DNA of 64,000 nucleotides, from the NCBI RefSeq assembly GCF_019264485.1, contig NZ_JAHVAA010000011.1, positions 434,001 to 498,000 of the forward strand. Reading direction: 5' to 3'. This DNA is from Sediminibacterium sp. Its GTDB lineage: Bacteria; Bacteroidota; Bacteroidia; Chitinophagales; Chitinophagaceae. Both the position numbers and the translations under genes were made by a program. Positions 5,032-58,261 of the stretch are shown here, piece by piece. The first letter of the stretch is position 1, and the number at the start of each line of letters is the position of its first letter. The notes beneath the pieces are model-generated. The model did no database searches, was not told the origin of the DNA, and saw nothing but the letters and a program-made list of their open reading frames with translations.

Positions 5032-5678
5032 TTGTTCCAATTTTTAAAAGTTTAGGCTTGTTTCATAAAATGTAGTGGGTACATTTTCGTTTAGGTGATG
5101 GAAAATTTTAATGGTGTTTGATTAATTTCTTTCTTTTCGGTATTTTTCTATCCAATACCTCAAAAAGTATCTTTTTTACTGTTTTTAAATGGTAAAGTGA
5201 GTTTAAATGACAAACGATGCTTCTTTCGAATAAATGATATTTCATTATCTACAGCACAAAATCTCACAACGTCAGTTTTTCTAAAGGCAGGATCGAAGCA
5301 TCAGCACCTTAAATAAGACCACCAGCGGGTCAAAGTGCTGCATTAATAGGTGTAAATGTTAATAAAAGATTAATGCAAACAAAAAAATAAATAAATATTA
5401 TTTTATTATATGCTCAAGTATATTTAAATGAATTTTTTAAGTGTTATTTTTTTTGAAATAAGAGGATATTTATGGTCGATTTTGCCGGCTAAAATCTCCT
5501 GGAAAATTAACAAAAGGCTGAAATATTGATCAATCAAGCCAGGTTTTTTCTACTATCCCTGCGAGGAAAACACCGTACATTTTCTAAAAAATACCGTTTT
5601 TTCCACATTGAATTAACAGTTAATATGCAATTGATTATTAACGTTTTGTAACCCTAACTAACCCCAAAACGAAAACGT
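5032..5678. other. AT-rich divergent intergenic region (susC and T9SS protein)
   Basis: This 647-base gap must hold the promoters of both divergent genes. It is strongly AT-rich, with A/T runs around 5380-5460. I found no convincing Bacteroidota promoter (TTTG, about 20 bases, TAnnTTTG) on either strand. A small inverted repeat is visible: CAGCAC at 5305-5310 and GTGCTG at 5335-5340. No open frame here looks like a gene. Confidence 0.5.
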
Positions 5679-35282: not shown

Positions 35283-36311
35283 TTATTTTTTTCGGAGAGA
35301 GGATTGACGGATGATCAGGTTCGATCGTATGACAATAGTATTGGTATGTTTTATGTTAGATAAACCTTTCAGGTGGTTGATCAGGTTTCTTGCTGCAATC
35401 TCGCCCATGTCAATACCCGGATAGTCAATGGTTGTTAACTGCGGTTCAATGATCTTTCCAATCGCATCATTGTTAAAGCCAACAATAGCAATATCTTCAG
35501 GAATACGCACGCCGTGCTCTTTAAGTGTTTGCATGCAAACGGCAGCAGAGAAATCGTTGGTTATAAAAGCCCCATCGGGTAGCGGGTTCATTTTGAGGAT
35601 TTCAAGTGCGGCTTCTACACCGCACTGCTCACTAAGGTCTTTTATAAGTACATATTTTTTATTGAAAGGAATATTGTTATCGTACAAGGCATCTGCATAT
35701 CCTTTGTGACGCTGTGCGTATACATTTCGTTTCAGGCTGGCGGTAACGAGTACAATTTTTTTGCAACCCTGTTCAATCAGGTGTTGCGTGGCCTGGTAAC
35801 CGCATTTATAGTTATCGATGATTACTTTGGTGCTTTCCCCTTTTTCTTCTACACGGTCAAAGAAAATTACCGGGATACCTTTTTCCTCAAAGAGTGCATA
35901 ATGAGCCAGGTCTGCTGTATCGAAAGCCAGGGAAGCAATGAGCCCGTCAACCCTTTTATGGAAAAGGTTAACGGCATTTGCAGCTTCTTTAACTGAACTT
36001 TCTGAGGAGTGGGCAATGATGAGATCGTAACCGGCTTCTGTAGTAACTTTTTCTATACCGGCCAATACTGAAGTGATAAAATTACTGTTCAGTTCGTGTA
36101 CAAGTACCCCAATGGTATTGGTCTTTTGTTTGCGAAGATTACTGGCAAAATTATTATGTCTGTACCCCAGTTCACGGGCAGTTTCCTGAATTCTCTTGCG
36201 GGTATTTTTATTAATAGCGGGATGGTCCTGTAAGCCACGGCTCACTGTTGCAGATGATAACTCAAGTTTTTGAGCAATATCATAGATGGTGACTTCCTTT
36301 TTCGTTTTCAT
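35283..36311 (-). CDS. LacI-family transcriptional regulator
   Basis: 342 residues from the ATG at 36311; a longer frame reaches 36356 but would include the operator-like sequence. Residues about 6-30 form the HTH (TIYDIAQKLELSSATVSRGLQD), then the hinge helix and a periplasmic-binding-like effector domain (TNTIGVLVHELNSNFITSVLAG). It heads the minus-strand xylan operon and faces xylBA-uxuA across a 1 kb gap with two matching operator candidates, one only two bases upstream of its own start codon. It is the obvious local regulator, with xylose, xylobiose or (methyl)glucuronate as possible effectors. Use of LacI rather than a hybrid two-component sensor is notable for a Bacteroidota xylan locus. 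Confidence 0.93.
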   Translation of the reverse strand: MKTKKEVTIYDIAQKLELSSATVSRGLQDHPAINKNTRKRIQETARELGYRHNNFASNLRKQKTNTIGVLVHELNSNFITSVLAGIEKVTTEAGYDLIIAHSSESSVKEAANAVNLFHKRVDGLIASLAFDTADLAHYALFEEKGIPVIFFDRVEEKGESTKVIIDNYKCGYQATQHLIEQGCKKIVLVTASLKRNVYAQRHKGYADALYDNNIPFNKKYVLIKDLSEQCGVEAALEILKMNPLPDGAFITNDFSAAVCMQTLKEHGVRIPEDIAIVGFNNDAIGKIIEPQLTTIDYPGIDMGEIAARNLINHLKGLSNIKHTNTIVIRSNLIIRQSSLRKK

Positions 36312-36313
36312 AT

Positions 36314-36327
36314 TGCAATCGGTTGTA
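36314..36327. promoter_or_regulatory. LacI-type operator candidate O1 (autoregulatory)
   Basis: TGCAATCGGTTGTA matches the purine/pyrimidine palindrome TGYAAYCGRTTRCA at 13 of 14 positions. It lies two bases upstream of the lacI ATG, so binding would block transcript elongation or translation of lacI and the operon behind it. Confidence 0.65.
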
Positions 36328-36413
36328 TAAAAATCGCAAAAAAAAATTAAAATCAAATTTTAGTTTTTCTGAAGACGAAACCAACTGATCTAAAGCATTG
36401 ACAGAAGGTATTG

Positions 36414-36444
36414 AAGCAGGTAAGTTTTCAAAATTTACCTGCTT
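36414..36444. repeat. 31-bp near-perfect palindrome in the lacI-xylB gap
   Basis: AAGCAGGTAA (36414-36423) and TTACCTGCTT (36435-36444) are exact reverse complements. The inner GTTTT/AAAAT continues the symmetry to a one-base centre, with one G/T position. No T-tract follows on either strand, so it is not a standard terminator. It lies about 100 bases upstream of lacI and may be a protein-binding site. Confidence 0.75.
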
Positions 36445-36564
36445 AAGTGAGTATATTGGCTAATTCATGTTAAAAAGAATAGGGAGCGTCTGGTTTAGAT
36501 GCCGCTGTTATAGCTGTTTAAAAGGCTTTGCTGACAACCATTTCAGCAGTTTCGTAATAGTGTT

Positions 36565-36631
36565 TAGCCGTTAGCGGTCAGTTTTCCGGGAAAGCTGCTT
36601 ATAGTTTTTTATCCGTGTAGCCTTTAGCGGT
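36565..36631. promoter_or_regulatory. Pair of direct repeats, possible regulator sites
   Basis: TAGCCGTTAGCGGT at 36565-36578 recurs as TAGCCTTTAGCGGT at 36618-36631. One base differs and the offset is 53 bp, about five helical turns. The first copy contains the partly symmetric CCGTTAGCGG. This could be a cooperative activator site. Confidence 0.4.
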
Positions 36632-36722
36632 TTGTTTCTGGCTTTGATCCGTTTGTGCAGATTATGAGGTAGTGGAAAGGCTCCCAATAAGGATCAAAAA
36701 CGGGATTTTTTTGTAAAAAAAT

Positions 36723-36736
36723 TGCAATCGGTTACA
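36723..36736. promoter_or_regulatory. LacI-type operator candidate O2
   Basis: TGCAATCGGTTACA matches TGYAAYCGRTTRCA at all 14 positions and shares 12 bases with O1. About 18 bases downstream, TATATTCG (36755-36762) resembles the Bacteroidota -7 box TAnnTTTG with one mismatch. O2 would then cover the -33 region of a plus-strand promoter for the structured RNA and xylBA. Confidence 0.68.
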
Positions 36737-36768
36737 TTTTTTGATAAATTCTCTTATATTCGTCTTGG

Positions 36769-37169
36769 AATGACTGATAACTGGTCGAATCATGTCTGAA
36801 ATTGCTTGCTGCGTTATATGAGAAAGTGGAAACTATTAAATAGTAAATCCTGTTCATTTTACCCGAACAGGCTCCCTTCCCTTATCACTGCACCTGCAAT
36901 TTTTCATGGATAGTATTTGTGTAATAAATACACAGATTACCAGCAGGTATCAACTTTTCAAAAGCATAACAAAACTGAATTAGTATAGGGTTCCATCCCG
37001 TTCGATTCTATTCAGACATCGTCTGAAAGGTGAATTGGATGGTAATCGGTTCTTCGGGACCGGGTTGGTTATTAAGCGTCATAAGGGTCACTTGCCGGTG
37101 TGGTTTGCTTGCAGGTTAGACCGACGATTGGCAAGGGGAGTTTGGCGTTTTACTCTCCTTGCTTTTTTT
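36769..37169 (+). ncRNA. Candidate structured RNA (about 400 nt) upstream of xylB
   Basis: No convincing protein frame lies here, but consecutive stem-loops do. They are a long-range pairing AAATTGC (36799-36805) with GCAATTT (36896-36902) enclosing a 7-bp hairpin (36849-36871); a 6-bp hairpin at 36918-36934; a three-part stem at 36993-37042 (CCATCC/GGATGG, ATTC/GAAT, TTCAGAC/GTCTGAA); a UUCG-capped hairpin at 37047-37062; and nested CGTC/GACG with GGTC/GACC (37077-37126). The block ends in a strong terminator. The 5' end is a guess from the -7-like box. It could be a stand-alone RNA or the attenuating leader of xylBA, whose start is 196 bases past the terminator. It does not show rnpB, tmRNA or SRP landmarks. 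Confidence 0.55.
37131..37169 (+). terminator. Intrinsic terminator ahead of xylB
   Basis: GCAAGGGGAGT (37131-37141) pairs with ACTCTCCTTGC (37152-37162) with one G/T wobble. A 10-base loop separates the arms and seven T follow. It ends the structured RNA candidate, or acts as an attenuator for xylBA. Confidence 0.88.
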
Positions 37170-37365
37170 GAGTCTCGTGATAATGAGAATGGAGGAAAAT
37201 GAATTGATATAAATCATTATCAAATTAATATAATGGATGAATGAAGAACGGGCTGTTTCCATCAAAATAAATGTGAACAGTTGTTTGTTTTGATAAATAA
37301 GGATGAACAGCATGCTTCACCATCCAAGGTTTCAAGTATCTTGATCATTATTAATTATTGACGGA

Positions 37366-38877
37366 ATGTTATTATTAGGTATAGATGTTGGAACTTCTTC
37401 TGTTAAGGTTTCAGTTGTCGATGCCGCTACACATCAATGTGTGGCATCAGGGCATTACCCGGAAACAGAAGCAGAAATCATCACCCCGCATCCTGGCTGG
37501 GCTGAGCAAAGTCCCGATCAGTGGTGGGAGTATGTAAAACAGGCTATACTAAAATGCAATACCAGCGGTAACTATGATCCACAGGATATTACTGCTATTG
37601 GTATCGCATACCAGATGCATGGATTGGTATTGGTAGATAATGATGGGCATGTGTTGCGTAATGCCATTATCTGGTGCGACAGCCGGGCAGTTGAAACTGG
37701 TAATAAAGCTTTTGACTTCATCGGTCGTGAATATTGTTTAAGCAGGCTGCTCAATTCACCCGGCAATTTTACTGCAAGCAAACTGGCATGGGTAAAGGAG
37801 TACGAGCCGGCTGTTTACGATAAAATACACAAGGTTATGTTACCCGGCGATTTTATTGCCTTTAAAATGACCGGTGATATTACCACCACTAACGCTGCAC
37901 TTTCGGAAGGTATTTTCTGGGACTTTAAGCAGGAAGGACTATCGACAGATATCATGCGTTATTTCGGATTCGATAATGCGCTTATTCCCAATATACAATC
38001 TTTGTTTTCTGCGCATGGTTACCTGAAAGAATCAGTGGCCAGCCGTTTGTCGTTAAAGGCAGGCATACCGGTTGCTTATAAAGCAGGTGATCAACCCAAT
38101 AATGCGCTCTCGTTAAATGTAATGAAGCCGGGTGAAGTAGCTGCAACTGCAGGAACATCGGGCGTTATATATGGTGTGAGTGATGAGCTGGGTTATGATC
38201 CTTATTCCCGTATCAACAGTTTTGCCCATGTAAATCATAGTGAAGCACTCAGGCGAATTGGTATACTGCTTTGCATCAATGGAACAGGTATTTTCAACCG
38301 GTGGATCAAAACCATCACGGGCGGTTCACAATCTTATTCAACACTGAATGAAGCTGCTGCATCCGTACCTGTTGGAGCAGAGGGTTTACTCGCCATACCA
38401 TTTGGCAATGGTGCCGAAAGGATGTTGGATAACCAGATAGTCGGCGCTCACTTTGAACAGATTGATCTGAATATGCATGGCATAGCACATATGGTAAGAG
38501 CAGTACAGGAAGGCATTGCTTTTTCTTTCCGTTATGGTCTCGATATCATGCGGGAGAATGGAATGAACCCACAGGTAGTACGTGCATCAAGGGCCAATCT
38601 CTTTCTGAGTGATGTATTTGCAAAAGCATTCGCTGGTGTGAATCAGGTATCTGTTGAGTTTTATGACGGAGATGGAAGTTACGGTGCAGCCATAGGAGCA
38701 GGAATGGGAGCCGGCATTTTTTCCAGTGCCGCTGAAGCTGCTGCAGGGAGAAAGCCCCTTGGTAATATTACTCCGTCTAATGTGGGTTTATATGAAGAAC
38801 GTTATGCAGCATGGAAAGAATCATTACAAACAAGAATTGAAATGCTGAAAAGCCATGAACCCGTTTCAGTAAGTTAA
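37366..38877 (+). CDS. xylB: Xylulokinase
   Basis: FGGY-family sugar kinase of 503 residues that phosphorylates D-xylulose to xylulose 5-phosphate. The ATP-binding start is [14 protein letters not shown]. The substrate-region MHGLV (XylB uses Met-His-Gly) and [12 protein letters not shown] are xylulokinase-specific. The probable catalytic Asp242 lies in [12 protein letters not shown], and the C-terminal actin-like half has the glycine-rich end ([16 protein letters not shown]). The gene is followed 37 bases later by xylA. Its upstream region carries the O2 operator, the structured RNA candidate and a terminator, so expression may depend on read-through or on a promoter after 37170. Confidence 0.96.
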
Positions 38878-43818: not shown

Positions 43819-44796
43819 TTATACCGCTTCTTCCCAGAATCCCATCTTACCATATTTCTCAATACGGTTGTTGATACGCTCGGTTGGGTTGATGCTTCTG
43901 ATCTCATTCAGGGTTTTGATGAGATAAGATTTCAGGATATCAGCTGCTTCGGCATAATCCCAATGTGCACCTCCTAATGGTTCGTGTACAATTTCATCTA
44001 CTAATCCAAATCCTTTCATATCTGTAGCCGTGAGACGTAATTGTTCAGCCGCTGTTTCTTTTTTATCCCAACTGCGCCAGAGGATGGAGCTGCAACTTTC
44101 CGGAGAGATAACAGTGTACCAGGTATTTTCCATCATCAGCACTTTATCGCCTACACCAATACCCAATGCGCCACCGGAAGCACCTTCGCCAATAATTACA
44201 ACGATCACCGGCACTTTCAGGCGAATCATTTCATAAATATTACGGGCAATGGCTTCACCCTGTCCACGTTCTTCTGCTTCCAGTCCTGGGAAGGCACCGG
44301 GTGTATCTACGAGACAAACAATGGGTTTATTGAATTTTTCGGCCAGACGCATTAAACGTAAAGCTTTGCGGTAACCTTCAGGATTGGCCATACCAAAATT
44401 GCGCAACTGGCGCAGTTTGGTATTGGTACCTTTCTGCTGACCAATAAACATCACGGTCTCACCATCGAGTTTGGCAAAACCGCCCACCATGGCTTTATCG
44501 TCTTTAAAATTGCGGTCGCCATGGAGCTCCACAAAATCGGTACACATTTTATCGATGTACTTGAGTGTATAGGGTCTGTCTGGATGACGGCTCAGTTGCA
44601 CACGCTGCCAGGGAGTAAGGTGTCTGGTGATCTCTTTTCTTTTTTCAAGGATAGAGTCTTCCAGTTGCTGAATGGTAGCTGTATAATCTATTTTAGGGTT
44701 CTTTTCGGCGAGTTTTCTGGTATCCTCAATTTGTTCGTACAGTTCCTTGATAGGGTTCTCAAAATCAAGGAATTGTCTGTTTGGGTATTGGGGCAT
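43819..44796 (-). CDS. accA: Acetyl-CoA carboxylase carboxyltransferase subunit alpha
   Basis: 325-residue AccA. The N-terminal helices ([17 protein letters not shown]) are followed by the crotonase-fold carboxyltransferase domain with [40 protein letters not shown], the oxyanion region [15 protein letters not shown] and [18 protein letters not shown], all typical. It transfers the carboxyl from biotin to acetyl-CoA in fatty acid synthesis, together with AccD, which is not in the window. It is cytoplasmic and constitutive housekeeping. Confidence 0.97.
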
Positions 44797-44945: not shown

Positions 44946-45019
44946 GGATCGGTAGTTCAGTTGGTTAGAATGCCGCCCTGTCACGGCGGAGGTCGCGGGT
45001 TCGAGTCCCGTCCGGTCCG
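44946..45019 (+). tRNA. tRNA-Asp (anticodon GTC)
   Basis: All arms fold. Acceptor GGATCGG pairs with CCGGTCC (one T/G), the D arm is GTTC/GAAT, the anticodon stem CCGCC/GGCGG encloses loop CTGTCAC with GTC at 44980-44982, and the T arm is GCGGG/CCCGT around TTCGAGT. The discriminator is G. CCA is not encoded. A terminator follows at once. Confidence 0.97.
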
Positions 45020-45227: not shown

Positions 45228-46409
45228 ATGACCAACAACCTGACTGCCGAAAAATGGAGAATATCTTCTATTGATATCCTCCGTGGGCTGGTAATGATCA
45301 TCATGGCACTCGACCATGTACGCGACTTCTTTCATATCTCTGCCATGGTTGAAGACCCTGCCAATCCGGCCACTACAACACCCGTACTGTTTTTTACACG
45401 ATGGATTACACATTATTGTGCGCCCATTTTTGTGTTCCTATCAGGTACTTCCGCTTTTTTATCCGGACAAAAGAAGACCAAGAAAGAATTGTCTTCCTTC
45501 CTGCTCAAACGAGGGCTGTTTTTGATGGTGTTGGAAATTGTTGTCGTCAATTTTATCATTGTATTTGATCCCCTATACCGTTTTATATTCTTTCAGGTAA
45601 TTTGGGTCATCGGATTATCGATGGTACTCTTATCTTTTCTGATCTATCTGCCACTGCGTGTGCTATTCATTATTGGTATCGTAATGGTTGCCGGGCATAA
45701 TATGCTCGATGGTTTCAATTACAATAACATGAATGAAATTCCTTTCTGGCATGCATTCTTTCACCAGCAGATGTTTACCAGTTATGCAGAAGGAAGATTT
45801 TTTGCTGTGTTATATCCGTTGATACCCTGGCCGGGAGTAATGTTGCTGGGTTATTGCATGGGGGCATGGTATGTAAAAGAATTTGATGCAGCCAAACGCA
45901 AACGTTTATTACTTGGTTGGGGACTTACTACCATCGCCGCTTTCTTTATACTCCGCTGGGTGAATGTGTATGGCGATCTGGTGCCATGGTCTACCCAGAA
46001 AGATAATACCATGACCATTATTTCTTTTTTCAATGTTACCAAATACCCGCCATCTTTGTTGTATTTGTGTATGACTTTAGGCCCTGCTTTATTATTACTC
46101 ATCTGGCTTGAAAAAGTAAAAGCCGGTTGGACAAATGTGGTAAGCGTTTATGGTCGTGTACCGATGTTTTATTATCTCTTACACTTCTTTACTATTCATG
46201 TGCTTTGTATTGTTGCTTTCTTCGCTGTAGGAAGACCATTAAGTGATATGGCAGCCGGTAATTTTGCATTCCGACCCAATGATTTTGGATTCACTTTACC
46301 AATAGTATACCTGATATGGATTGCTGTAGTAGCAGGTCTTTATCCGTTGTGTAAACGATATGATACATTCAAGCAACATAATAAAAGATGGTGGACGGGG
46401 TATTTATGA
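45228..46409 (+). CDS. HGSNAT-like (DUF1624) integral membrane acyltransferase
   Basis: 393 residues with about ten hydrophobic segments. The start RISSIDILRGLVMIIMALDHVRDFF matches the heparan-alpha-glucosaminide N-acetyltransferase catalytic family: the conserved Arg-Gly of DILRG and the catalytic-type His of LDHVRDF. The following loop WITHYCAPIFVFLSGTSAF is also a family landmark. Such bacterial proteins are thought to transfer acyl groups across the inner membrane to glycans, but no bacterial substrate is known to me. It is monocistronic and convergent with mutS. Confidence 0.82.
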   Translation: MTNNLTAEKWRISSIDILRGLVMIIMALDHVRDFFHISAMVEDPANPATTTPVLFFTRWITHYCAPIFVFLSGTSAFLSGQKKTKKELSSFLLKRGLFLMVLEIVVVNFIIVFDPLYRFIFFQVIWVIGLSMVLLSFLIYLPLRVLFIIGIVMVAGHNMLDGFNYNNMNEIPFWHAFFHQQMFTSYAEGRFFAVLYPLIPWPGVMLLGYCMGAWYVKEFDAAKRKRLLLGWGLTTIAAFFILRWVNVYGDLVPWSTQKDNTMTIISFFNVTKYPPSLLYLCMTLGPALLLLIWLEKVKAGWTNVVSVYGRVPMFYYLLHFFTIHVLCIVAFFAVGRPLSDMAAGNFAFRPNDFGFTLPIVYLIWIAVVAGLYPLCKRYDTFKQHNKRWWTGYL

Positions 46410-54898: not shown

Positions 54899-55903
54899 TT
54901 ATAAGTTATTGATGTAATTGAGTATATCTGCCAGACTTTTCTTTTGCGGTTCTATTTTATACACATTACTTGTTCCCACATCATTCACTAAGCGGGTGCC
55001 CAGGTAAAGATCGGAACCCAGTCTGGAGAAACTCAGTATCCTGATTTTTGCCCCTTTGGGTATGCGTATGGTTGTAAAACTCCTTGACCGGAAATCTGCC
55101 GTAAGGTTCACTACTATTTTCTGGTTCTCGAATACAGCATATACCACTGTATTTTTATTGGTGAAATTCTGTGGCAGGTAAGCAAAAATATTGGTATGGG
55201 GTAAAGTACTGTCAATAAAACGGTTGGCAGCTGTCCACCTCAATTGTGTTGTCGTGAGTTCATAACCTTTCAATGGATTGCCAAGAGAATCCTGTCCCTG
55301 CCATGTTTTAATATGGCTGGTGTCTGTATGTCTTGTCCAGGTATGTAAAGTATCGATACCACTTGAAATAAAAGGAATTGTTTCCCTTGCATGAAATACC
55401 TGCATATTGGTTTTAGGATCTTCCGTATCTGAAAAGCGAACAGTGATAGATGCATTCGGAGCGAGCTTTAATTCCTGACCATTTTTAACTACACGGATAA
55501 AAAAACCGCCGCCACTTTCTACCAGGTAACCCGATGAGGTAGTGGGTTTAAAGAATTTGATAAAATCACCTTTCTTTTTCAACCTGAAAAATTCAATCCT
55601 TACTTTTCCGGTAGCAACTGTGCCTGAGTTTTCTATAAAAGAAGCTGCTGGTACCTGTATACTTATATAATCTTTGAATGTAATTGTATCGCCCAGTGTA
55701 CAATCAAAAGTATCGATGATCAGGTCTGGTAAAAACTGACCGGCCAGTTGATGAATAGGTGCATTACCAGGTGTGGTAGCTACCCAAACCGTATCGTTTC
55801 TGAGATCACCAGGATAGGTGGTAAAATTATCTGACAATTCTTTTTTACAGGCTGTAAAAAAGAAGAGCATTGCAACCGTTGTGATGAATAAATTCTTTTT
55901 CAT
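54899..55903 (-). CDS. Lipoprotein of unknown function
   Basis: 334 residues with a clear lipoprotein signal (LFFFTACKKE, Cys19). The body is beta-rich, with DTITFKDYISIQVPAASFIENSG early (resembling the ZU5/carboxypeptidase-like opening strands of Bacteroidota lipoproteins) and a C-terminal part RIPKGAKIRILSFSRLGSDLYLG. No catalytic motif. It is 56 bases after the membrane-anchored barrel gene on the same strand, so it may belong to the sigma-factor group. Confidence 0.75.
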   Translation of the reverse strand: MKKNLFITTVAMLFFFTACKKELSDNFTTYPGDLRNDTVWVATTPGNAPIHQLAGQFLPDLIIDTFDCTLGDTITFKDYISIQVPAASFIENSGTVATGKVRIEFFRLKKKGDFIKFFKPTTSSGYLVESGGGFFIRVVKNGQELKLAPNASITVRFSDTEDPKTNMQVFHARETIPFISSGIDTLHTWTRHTDTSHIKTWQGQDSLGNPLKGYELTTTQLRWTAANRFIDSTLPHTNIFAYLPQNFTNKNTVVYAVFENQKIVVNLTADFRSRSFTTIRIPKGAKIRILSFSRLGSDLYLGTRLVNDVGTSNVYKIEPQKKSLADILNYINNL

Positions 55904-57553: not shown

Positions 57554-58090
57554 TTATACAGCAATTTTTTGCAATTGTAAGATTTGTTGTTGCAGCATCT
57601 TCCGCGCCTTTACTAACTGGCTGCGACTGGTGCCGGGTTGTATATGTAGCATTTCTGCAATTTCTTCATGGCTATACCCTTCAATCACATTCAGGTTAAA
57701 TACCAGTCTGTATCCATCGGGTAACTGGTTAATCAGTTTCATCAGGTCGTCTTCTCCCAGATGCGTATAAGCACTGGCTTCCACCTGTGGGCCACTGTTA
57801 CTGTGTTCATCAATATCCTTGAACTTCATTTTCTTTCGCTCTAAGTGGCGAATGGCGGTATTTACTACAATACGCCTGATCCAGCCTTCGAAAGACCCTT
57901 CAAACTTAAACTGGCCGATATATTGAAAAACTTTGATAAAGGCATCCTGAATCATATCTTCTGCCTCCATAGCGTCGTTGGCATAGCGAAGACATACAGA
58001 CATCATTTTACCGGCATACTTCTCAAAAAGCATACGTTGGCAACTGTTTTCCTGCCTGATACAGCCTCTAATCAGATCGTGTTCTGTCAC
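57554..58090 (-). CDS. ECF RNA polymerase sigma factor
   Basis: 178-residue sigma-70 family protein with region 2 (MSVCLRYANDAMEAEDMIQDAFIKVFQ) and region 4 (LPDGYRLVFNLNVIEGYSHEEIAEMLHIQPGTSRSQLVKAR as HTH, positions about 120-160) and no region 1 or 3. The start is GTG at 58090: an in-frame stop 15 bases upstream leaves no ATG option before the conserved start of region 2. It is followed directly by its probable membrane partner gene. Stimulus and regulon unknown. Confidence 0.93.
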   Translation of the reverse strand: MTEHDLIRGCIRQENSCQRMLFEKYAGKMMSVCLRYANDAMEAEDMIQDAFIKVFQYIGQFKFEGSFEGWIRRIVVNTAIRHLERKKMKFKDIDEHSNSGPQVEASAYTHLGEDDLMKLINQLPDGYRLVFNLNVIEGYSHEEIAEMLHIQPGTSRSQLVKARKMLQQQILQLQKIAV

Positions 58091-58187
58091 CTGCGGGGTA
58101 GTTTAGTGGGTTGACGTCGCTTACATAGATACCACTTTATGTGCTATTGTTGCCCGGAACGGGATGAATTTTGCCCGAAAAATAAGG

Positions 58188-58213
58188 AAAACCCGGCCAG
58201 TCAGCCAGGTTTT
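58188..58213 (-). terminator. Probable terminator of the GH39 gene
   Basis: On the minus strand AAAACC-type and GGTTTT-type arms, extended by GGC/GCC with one mismatch, enclose a four-base loop and are followed by a T-rich stretch. It lies between the GH39 stop and the sigma factor promoter. Confidence 0.6.
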
Positions 58214-58261
58214 AACTGAGAAAGAAGCCTTAAAATTTAAAAATCCGACAATGACCCTTCC

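What the first reader, a model, noticed from the sequence alone, without database searches (positions are those of the whole stretch)
36769..37169. Possible uncharacterised structured RNA between lacI and xylB
About 400 nt without a plausible protein carries at least five stem-loops in a row, including a three-part stem (36993-37042), a UUCG tetraloop hairpin (37047-37062) and nested stems (37077-37126), and ends in a strong intrinsic terminator. A perfect LacI-type operator and a -7-like box lie just upstream. Either it is a stand-alone regulatory RNA under xylan control, or a long attenuating leader of xylBA. It lacks the landmarks I know for rnpB, tmRNA and SRP RNA. A 6S-like RNA remains possible.
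Basis: partly seen in the sequence, partly recalled or inferred. Interest (0 to 1): 0.75.

Follow-up and report, generated by a model that had tools for sequence, protein, structure and literature searches.

The report
Terminated noncoding RNA upstream of xylB
Three related bacteria carry a conserved folded RNA, about 400 bases long and matching no known RNA family, between a sugar-controlled promoter and their xylose-use genes; the fold looks real, but whether it is a free regulator or a control leader of those genes is not settled.

Summary
Of 55 consensus pairs in the 3' domain, 54 and 55 survive 14 and 12 stem substitutions (randomised p 0.00005 and 0.00015), while neighbouring xylB differs at 52-62% of fourfold sites. 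No Rfam family matches. It was found in 3 of 147 genomes of its genus and, in samples of family, order and phylum, only in the window's own genome. It is not a conserved protein: the long frame is broken in S. goheungense and its synonymous sites are nearly frozen. The promoter carries the LacI-type operator that, in seven relatives where no RNA was found, lies 71-183 nt from xylB; here the RNA and a strong terminator sit in between. I favour a discrete LacI-controlled noncoding RNA ending at the terminator, with xylB driven mainly by its own downstream promoter (0.42). A terminator-controlled leader of xylBA is nearly as likely (0.39): two long-range pairings of the 5' part with the terminator arms are kept in all three genomes. 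No transcript, ligand or target was shown.

The parts
36723..36736 (+). LacI-type operator TGCAATCGGTTACA of the xyl promoter
   Evidence: shares 13 nt with the site at the lacI start; identical in L032 and L033; equivalents 71-183 nt upstream of xylB in seven relatives in which no such RNA was found
36755..36762 (+). -7-type promoter box TATATTCG
   Evidence: same in L032 and L033; the same box type 31-32 nt from the operator start in L044, L049, L050, L053; not found by the pattern in L004, L005, L019
36769..37169 (+). predicted noncoding RNA, about 400 nt (5' end inferred from the -7 box)
   Evidence: fold z -4.04; conserved in two other genomes
36794..36811 (+). conserved 5' block GUCUGAAAUUGCUUGCUG
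   Evidence: 17 of 18 positions invariant in three genomes; 36790-36829 at 80-90% identity
36818..36829 (+). AUGAGAAAGUGG: start codon shared by three genomes; GAGAAAGYGG (36820-36829) can pair with the terminator's 3' arm and U tail
   Evidence: frames of 31, 44 and 8 codons; 10-pair helix kept in all three, 0 of 300 column shuffles as long
36830..36981 (+). variable middle of the RNA
   Evidence: identity per 20-nt bin mostly 10-65%
36877..36883 (+). UUCCCUU, possible antiterminator strand facing 37134-37140
   Evidence: 7 pairs kept in all three; 1.7% of column shuffles of the 5' part as long, 15% if all upstream sequence is allowed
36989..37129 (+). 3' domain closed by 36989-36992 with 37126-37129
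   Evidence: 4 closing pairs, 3 vary and all cells stay paired
36993..37042 (+). hairpin P1, three-part stem
   Evidence: 20 counted pairs, 1 broken cell of 60 (helices 2 and 3)
37046..37063 (+). hairpin P2 (UUCG loop in the window's copy)
   Evidence: 7 pairs, all kept (helix 4)
37064..37077 (+). linker between P2 and P3
   Evidence: lies in 37059-37084, identical in all three
37078..37125 (+). nested stems P3 with invariant GUGGUUUGC (37100-37108) in its loop
   Evidence: 12 counted pairs, 4 with changes on both sides, all cells paired (helices 5-7)
37130..37169 (+). intrinsic terminator: 12-pair stem, 10-nt loop, U7 tail
   Evidence: 0 of 12 pairs vary in three genomes against 16 of 43 pairs elsewhere
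37335..37342 (+). AGTATCTT, possible -7 box of a separate xylB promoter
   Evidence: 31-34 nt before the xylB ATG in 7 of the 10 loci compared, three with and four without the RNA
37366..38877 (+). xylB, xylulokinase-like (FGGY family)
   Evidence: Pfam FGGY_N and FGGY_C
35283..36311 (-). LacI-family regulator
   Evidence: Pfam LacI and Peripla_BP_3

Best explanation
A single-copy noncoding RNA of about 400 nt is made from the LacI-operator promoter that in relatives reads straight into xylB. When the LacI regulator lets go of its operator (presumably on a xylan or xylose breakdown product), polymerase copies the RNA and stops at the intrinsic terminator 37130-37169, about 200 nt short of xylB, releasing a discrete folded RNA. 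xylB is then driven mainly by a promoter of its own just before the gene (AGTATCTT) or by leak-through. The RNA acts as a sugar-induced regulator through its invariant unpaired parts (5' block, linker, P3 loop), by pairing with mRNAs or holding a protein. Shown here: conserved structure, terminator and operator sequence, no conserved long protein frame, a single locus found. Inferred: the transcript, its induction, the second promoter, the mode of action.
For: Stems kept under substitution: 55 of 55 pairs (UBA12329) and 54 of 55 (S. goheungense), null means 50.6 and 48.9; 99.4% of cells paired against 30-51% when partners are slid. 23 of 176 and 25 of 174 positions of the domain differ from the window while 52-62% of xylB fourfold sites differ. 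A strong, fully conserved terminator ends the conserved block, and the sequence after it (37182-37261) drops to 5-55% identity, as expected at the end of a transcription unit. AGTATCTT stays 31-34 nt before the xylB ATG in 7 of 10 loci, including four without the RNA, which fits an independent xylB promoter. The pairing of the 5' block with the 3' tail would also suit a free RNA with joined ends.
Against: No transcript was observed. The promoter corresponds to the xylB promoter of relatives, so a leader role is natural. Two candidate alternative pairings with the terminator arms are kept in all three genomes, and a start codon at 36818 is shared by all three; both fit a leader better. AGTATCTT matches the -7 consensus TAnnTTTG incompletely and I saw no -33 element. 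A local target search (35 of the 39 orthologous gene starts, five RNA segments, both species) gave nothing beyond chance (fraction of null minima as good 0.23-0.94). With three sequences the tool's column shuffles reach the observed pairing in 14 of 500.
Confidence: 0.42

Rival explanations
1. Cis-acting leader: the RNA is the 5' leader of xylBA and decides between termination at 37130-37169 and read-through (riboswitch, protein-bound attenuator, or attenuation through a short upstream frame starting at 36818).
For: The promoter corresponds to the xylB promoter of relatives, same orientation, 3 of 3 RNA loci upstream of xylB. The closing helix abuts the terminator without a gap, and the terminator hairpin is frozen in sequence (0 of 12 pairs vary against 16 of 43, p 0.012), as if its arms had another partner. 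Kept in all three genomes: UUCCCUU (36877-36883) with AGGGGAG of the terminator 5' arm, 7 pairs, 3 of them varying (1.7% of column shuffles of the 5' part, 15% if all upstream sequence is searched); GAGAAAGYGG (36820-36829) with UUGCUUUUUU of the 3' arm and tail, 10 pairs (0 of 300 shuffles). A start codon at 36818 is shared by all three.
Against: These pairings are purine-pyrimidine runs rich in G-U pairs, picked after looking, and column shuffles break natural runs, so their odds are overstated. Before the 3' arm is made, the terminator 5' arm is predicted to pair with a different stretch in each genome: P3 5' arm in the window, the 5' block in UBA12329, the middle in S. goheungense. A third candidate, P3 loop UUUGCY with GGCAAG, is within chance (21% of shuffles). 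The frames from 36818 diverge at once and run 31, 44 and 8 codons. The stretch 37182-37261 after the terminator is unconserved.
Confidence: 0.39
2. A 6S-like or other housekeeping RNA.
For: Stable fold; no RF00013 match in this genome.
Against: Found in only 3 of 147 genus genomes, so unlikely to be the genus's housekeeping RNA; RNase P RNA is elsewhere in this genome. The RF00013 search rang in only 6 of 14 control genomes, so a missing 6S match says little.
Confidence: 0.03
3. A decayed or short protein gene (frame 36984-37202) whose sequence happens to fold.
For: Frame open in the window and, up to a TAG, in UBA12329, 79% amino-acid identity over 63 residues; window/UBA12329 differences lean to third codon positions (12 of 22).
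Against: In S. goheungense two single-base gaps and a TAA break it, and there the differences show no such lean (7, 10, 7). Between window and UBA12329 11 changed codons are nonsynonymous and 9 synonymous, and only 2 of 20 fourfold sites differ against 52% in xylB. No Pfam match at E 0.1. It runs across the terminator.
Confidence: 0.04
4. A multi-part DNA control region whose folding potential is incidental.
For: DNA sites do lie here (operator, promoter), and 36604-36720 upstream of the promoter is also partly conserved.
Against: Pair-preserving substitutions and a terminator with U tail on the + strand point to RNA.
Confidence: 0.07

Closest known systems
GibS of Bacteroides thetaiotaomicron (PMC7366714, passages seen)
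   Same: Intergenic noncoding RNA of a Bacteroidota species with its own transcription start and a likely terminator, linked to sugar supply.
   Different: GibS is about 145 nt and largely unstructured with a 5' single-stranded seed; this RNA is about 400 nt and strongly folded, beside a LacI operator. No sequence relation was tested.
Terminator-controlled leaders and riboswitch candidates (examples in PMC11109978, passages seen)
   Same: Conserved helices followed by an intrinsic terminator, between a promoter and metabolic genes; some candidates there have a start codon and antiterminator too.
   Different: The antiterminator candidates here are weak; known from three genomes only; about 200 nt from terminator to gene.
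lacI-xylB gaps of other Chitinophagaceae (L044, L049, L050, L053, L004, L005, L019)
   Same: Divergent lacI-xylB arrangement with the same operator type.
   Different: Operator only 71-183 nt from xylB; no credible match to model R1 in them.
6S RNA (RF00013)
   Same: Stable folded noncoding RNA.
   Different: No Rfam match; found in only 3 of 147 genus genomes.

Membership tests
any Rfam 15 family | covariance-model match at the gathering score | tested here: not met
   Only a tRNA at 44946-45019 in the whole window; at E up to 10 in 36300-37400 two unrelated matches far below cut-off
6S RNA | match to RF00013 | tested here: not met
6S RNA | broad presence within a genus | tested here: not met
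   found in 3 of 147 genus genomes, some of them incomplete
6S RNA | binding to RNA polymerase holoenzyme | not testable with these tools
   needs an experiment
RNase P RNA | match to RF00010 | tested here: not met
   the genome's only match is elsewhere, G000 C10:48179-48552
stand-alone sRNA | promoter at the 5' end and intrinsic terminator at the 3' end | tested here: met
   operator and -7 box, terminator in 3 of 3; sequence level only, no standard -33 element
stand-alone sRNA | discrete transcript | not testable with these tools
   no expression data at hand
stand-alone sRNA | complementary target at gene starts | tested here: inconclusive
   35 of 39 local orthologous gene starts, none beyond chance; the rest of the genome not tested
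transcription-attenuation leader | mutually exclusive antiterminator kept across homologues | tested here: inconclusive
   candidates of 7 and 10 pairs kept in all three, rich in G-U
transcription-attenuation leader | located between promoter and regulated gene | tested here: met
   3 of 3 loci upstream of xylB in the same orientation; that xylB is regulated from this promoter is inferred
peptide-controlled attenuator | short upstream frame kept in homologues | tested here: inconclusive
   start codon at 36818 in all three, but frames of 31, 44 and 8 codons without similarity past the first residues
small protein gene | reading frame kept in homologues | tested here: not met
   two frameshifts and a stop in S. 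goheungense

The most novel reading that the evidence does not exclude
The RNA is a new riboswitch class that senses a pentose metabolite (for example xylose, xylulose or xylulose 5-phosphate) and sets termination ahead of xylBA, acting as a second, RNA-level sensor beneath the LacI switch.
Probability: 0.12. Interest if true: 0.8.

Novelty: new member of a known kind. Interest (0 to 1): 0.42.

Why it matters
From general knowledge, regulatory RNAs of Bacteroidota outside Bacteroides are little charted. A conserved, terminated RNA found in one small group between a LacI-type promoter and xylB would be a case of a new RNA gene or leader arising inside a sugar operon, and it comes with clear tests: map its ends, and delete it with the terminator left in place. 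If it proves to sense a pentose, that would be a notable new RNA sensor.

Tried and rejected
Rfam scans, strict and permissive: nothing relevant. Phage and plasmid collections: no match; viral contigs with an exact 22-nt pattern: 0. Covariance model R1: found in 3 of 147 genus genomes, and 1 of 394 family, 1 of 396 order, 1 of 395 phylum genomes, the 1 being the window's own each time; these samples overlap. The large-set searches use stricter filters and a loose first look, so diverged homologues could be missed; no metagenome collection was scanned. R1 without filters on nine neighbour loci: six matches up to E 5, best 14.1 bits, L006 4328-4395, E 0.039, read as chance because it is 68 nt long and lies downstream of xylB in a locus without the lacI gap. 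5'-block pattern with 2 mismatches: 49 places in 39 of 147 genomes against 8 places for the reversed control; the three known loci are the only exact ones, the others differ at 1-2 positions and were not studied, so the excess over the control is unexplained. Long-range pairing of the 5' end with the linker (window MFE): the outer AUGAC/GUCAU part is not kept in the other two; GAUAAC/GUUAUU is kept in three, left open. Linker/terminator-loop pairing AAGCGU/GCGUUU: present in all three, but 50% of shuffles do as well. Local target search: a first ranking put GH67 and the gene at 54899-55903 on top (30 gene pairs); with species-specific segments and a null for the best of 35 neither held. Protein reading: rejected; the three weak hits outside the three RNA genomes (E 0.065-0.087 per genome) are what 147 genomes give by chance. 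Before counting pairs I dropped 8 of the 63 consensus pairs as weak; with all 63 the unpaired cells are 0, 1 and 2 in window, UBA12329 and S. goheungense, i.e. 3 of 189 instead of 1 of 165. Papers: searches gave listings with starts of abstracts; no listed title described this RNA. Passages only were seen of PMC7366714 and PMC11109978 (no occurrence of bacteroid-, chitinophag-, flavobacter- or xyl-).

Full report
WHAT IS THERE. On the minus strand a run of genes includes a GH67 alpha-glucuronidase and a LacI-family regulator; on the plus strand follow xylB, xylA and uxuA (Pfam; xylA is named from its xylose isomerase-like TIM barrel and its place after xylB). The 1,054-nt gap between lacI and xylB holds the finding.

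STRUCTURE. The + strand of 36769-37169 folds at -119.8 kcal/mol, z -4.04, 0 of 100 shuffles as good. The strongest part is the 3' domain, 36989-37169: a short closing helix, hairpins P1 and P2, an invariant linker, nested stems P3 and a 12-pair terminator with U7.

COMPARISON. The gap's RNA part is found in two other genomes (L032, a MAG; L033, S. goheungense) at 77% and 74% identity over about 580 nt, upstream of xylB; in L033 a whole lacI lies divergently upstream, in L032 the contig ends within 80 bases beyond the matching lacI start. In the 3' domain 55 of 55 and 54 of 55 consensus pairs survive 12 and 14 stem substitutions; placing the same substitutions at random among stem positions keeps 50.6 and 48.9 on average (p 0.00015 and 0.00005). 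With the structure predicted from the window alone, 57 of 60 and 56 of 59 are kept (p 0.0059 and 0.0001). Five pairs changed on both sides; sliding the partners drops pairing from 99.4% to 30-51%; but in the tool's column shuffles 14 of 500 reach the observed values, so with three sequences the covariation signal is moderate. I had dropped 8 of 63 consensus pairs before this count; with them, 3 of 189 cells are unpaired. The consensus structure was chosen on these sequences, which favours it. Sequence constraint is clear: xylB differs at 52-62% of fourfold sites between these genomes, while the 20-nt bins of 36982-37161 are 50-100% identical, most of them 70% or more; the middle 36830-36981 and the stretch 37182-37261 are much less conserved. 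Among 12 intergenic gaps compared between the window and S. goheungense, 8 were long enough for a 180-nt score; this gap has the joint highest (0.86), with 58034-58261, part of which may be coding.

NOT A CONSERVED PROTEIN. A frame of 72 codons is open here and partly in the MAG, but S. goheungense has two single-base gaps and a stop in it; 2 of 20 fourfold sites differ between window and MAG against 52% in xylB; no Pfam match. Nearer the 5' end a start codon at 36818 is shared by all three genomes, with frames of 31, 44 and 8 codons that diverge at once.

PROMOTER AND EVOLUTION. The RNA starts just after the operator TGCAATCGGTTACA and the box TATATTCG. In seven relatives with a divergent lacI-xylB gap the same operator type lies 71-183 nt before xylB, and in four of them the same type of box lies 31-32 nt from the operator start; in the three RNA genomes the operator is 601-643 nt away. 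No credible R1 match was found in those seven. So the RNA, terminator and following spacer occupy what is a short xylB leader elsewhere. AGTATCTT, 31-34 nt before the xylB start in 7 of the 10 loci (three with the RNA, four without), may mark a second promoter; it is absent in L004, L005 and L019.

DISTRIBUTION. BLAST and model R1 each find it in 3 of 147 genus genomes; R1 finds only the window's own genome in overlapping samples of 394 (family), 396 (order) and 395 (phylum) genomes. No relevant Rfam, phage or plasmid match.

HOW IT MIGHT WORK. Shown: structure, terminator, operator, no conserved long frame. Inferred: that it is transcribed, that LacI controls it, and what it does. For a discrete RNA speak the frozen strong terminator closing the conserved block, the loss of conservation after it, and the possible xylB promoter. 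For a regulated leader speak the correspondence of the promoter with the xylB promoter of relatives, the closing helix abutting the terminator, the terminator hairpin's zero variation (0 of 12 pairs against 16 of 43, p 0.012), the shared start codon, and two pairings kept in all three genomes: 36877-36883 with the terminator 5' arm (7 pairs; 1.7% of shuffles of the 5' part, 15% with all upstream sequence) and 36820-36829 with the 3' arm and U tail (10 pairs, many G-U; 0 of 300 shuffles). The second would equally suit a free RNA with joined ends. Two other candidate pairings are within chance, the terminator arm's predicted partner before termination differs between the genomes, and no target among 35 local gene starts stood out. 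I put 0.42 on the discrete RNA and 0.39 on the leader.

VERDICT. A real structured RNA, undescribed within the searches named, of narrow known range and of a known kind; function open.

Noticed in passing
S. goheungense (G071 C1 about 515102-525141; L064/L065), between the orthologues of window 43819-44796 and 45228-46409: About 10 kb extra, 32% GC against 40% for the 75 kb around it, with a tRNA-Asp gene at its edge (the window has a tRNA at 44946-45019 at the matching place, without the insert); it encodes a phage-type integrase, a DUF1156/N6-N4 DNA methylase, a GmrSD-type protein and an AAA protein: a likely defence island integrated at the tRNA.
   Followed up: partly
window 36604-36715: Block upstream of the RNA's operator, 30-95% identical per 20-nt bin in the three genomes, with repeated ATCCGT; not explained by the RNA or the operator.
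   Followed up: no
window 37262-37301: AT-rich block with TTGTTTGTTTTGATA, 60-95% identical in three genomes; in the window 71% similar over 35 nt to 36715-36749; possibly a second control site for xylB.
   Followed up: partly
window 5032-5678: Divergent intergenic gap with a 60-nt stretch 98% identical to S. goheungense and a 180-nt stretch at 81%; may hold another conserved control region.
   Followed up: no
L049, L050 xylB leaders (Flavihumibacter): Short xylB leaders with small hairpins that seem to change on both sides (AGTG..CACT against TGCG..CGCT), read by eye.
   Followed up: no
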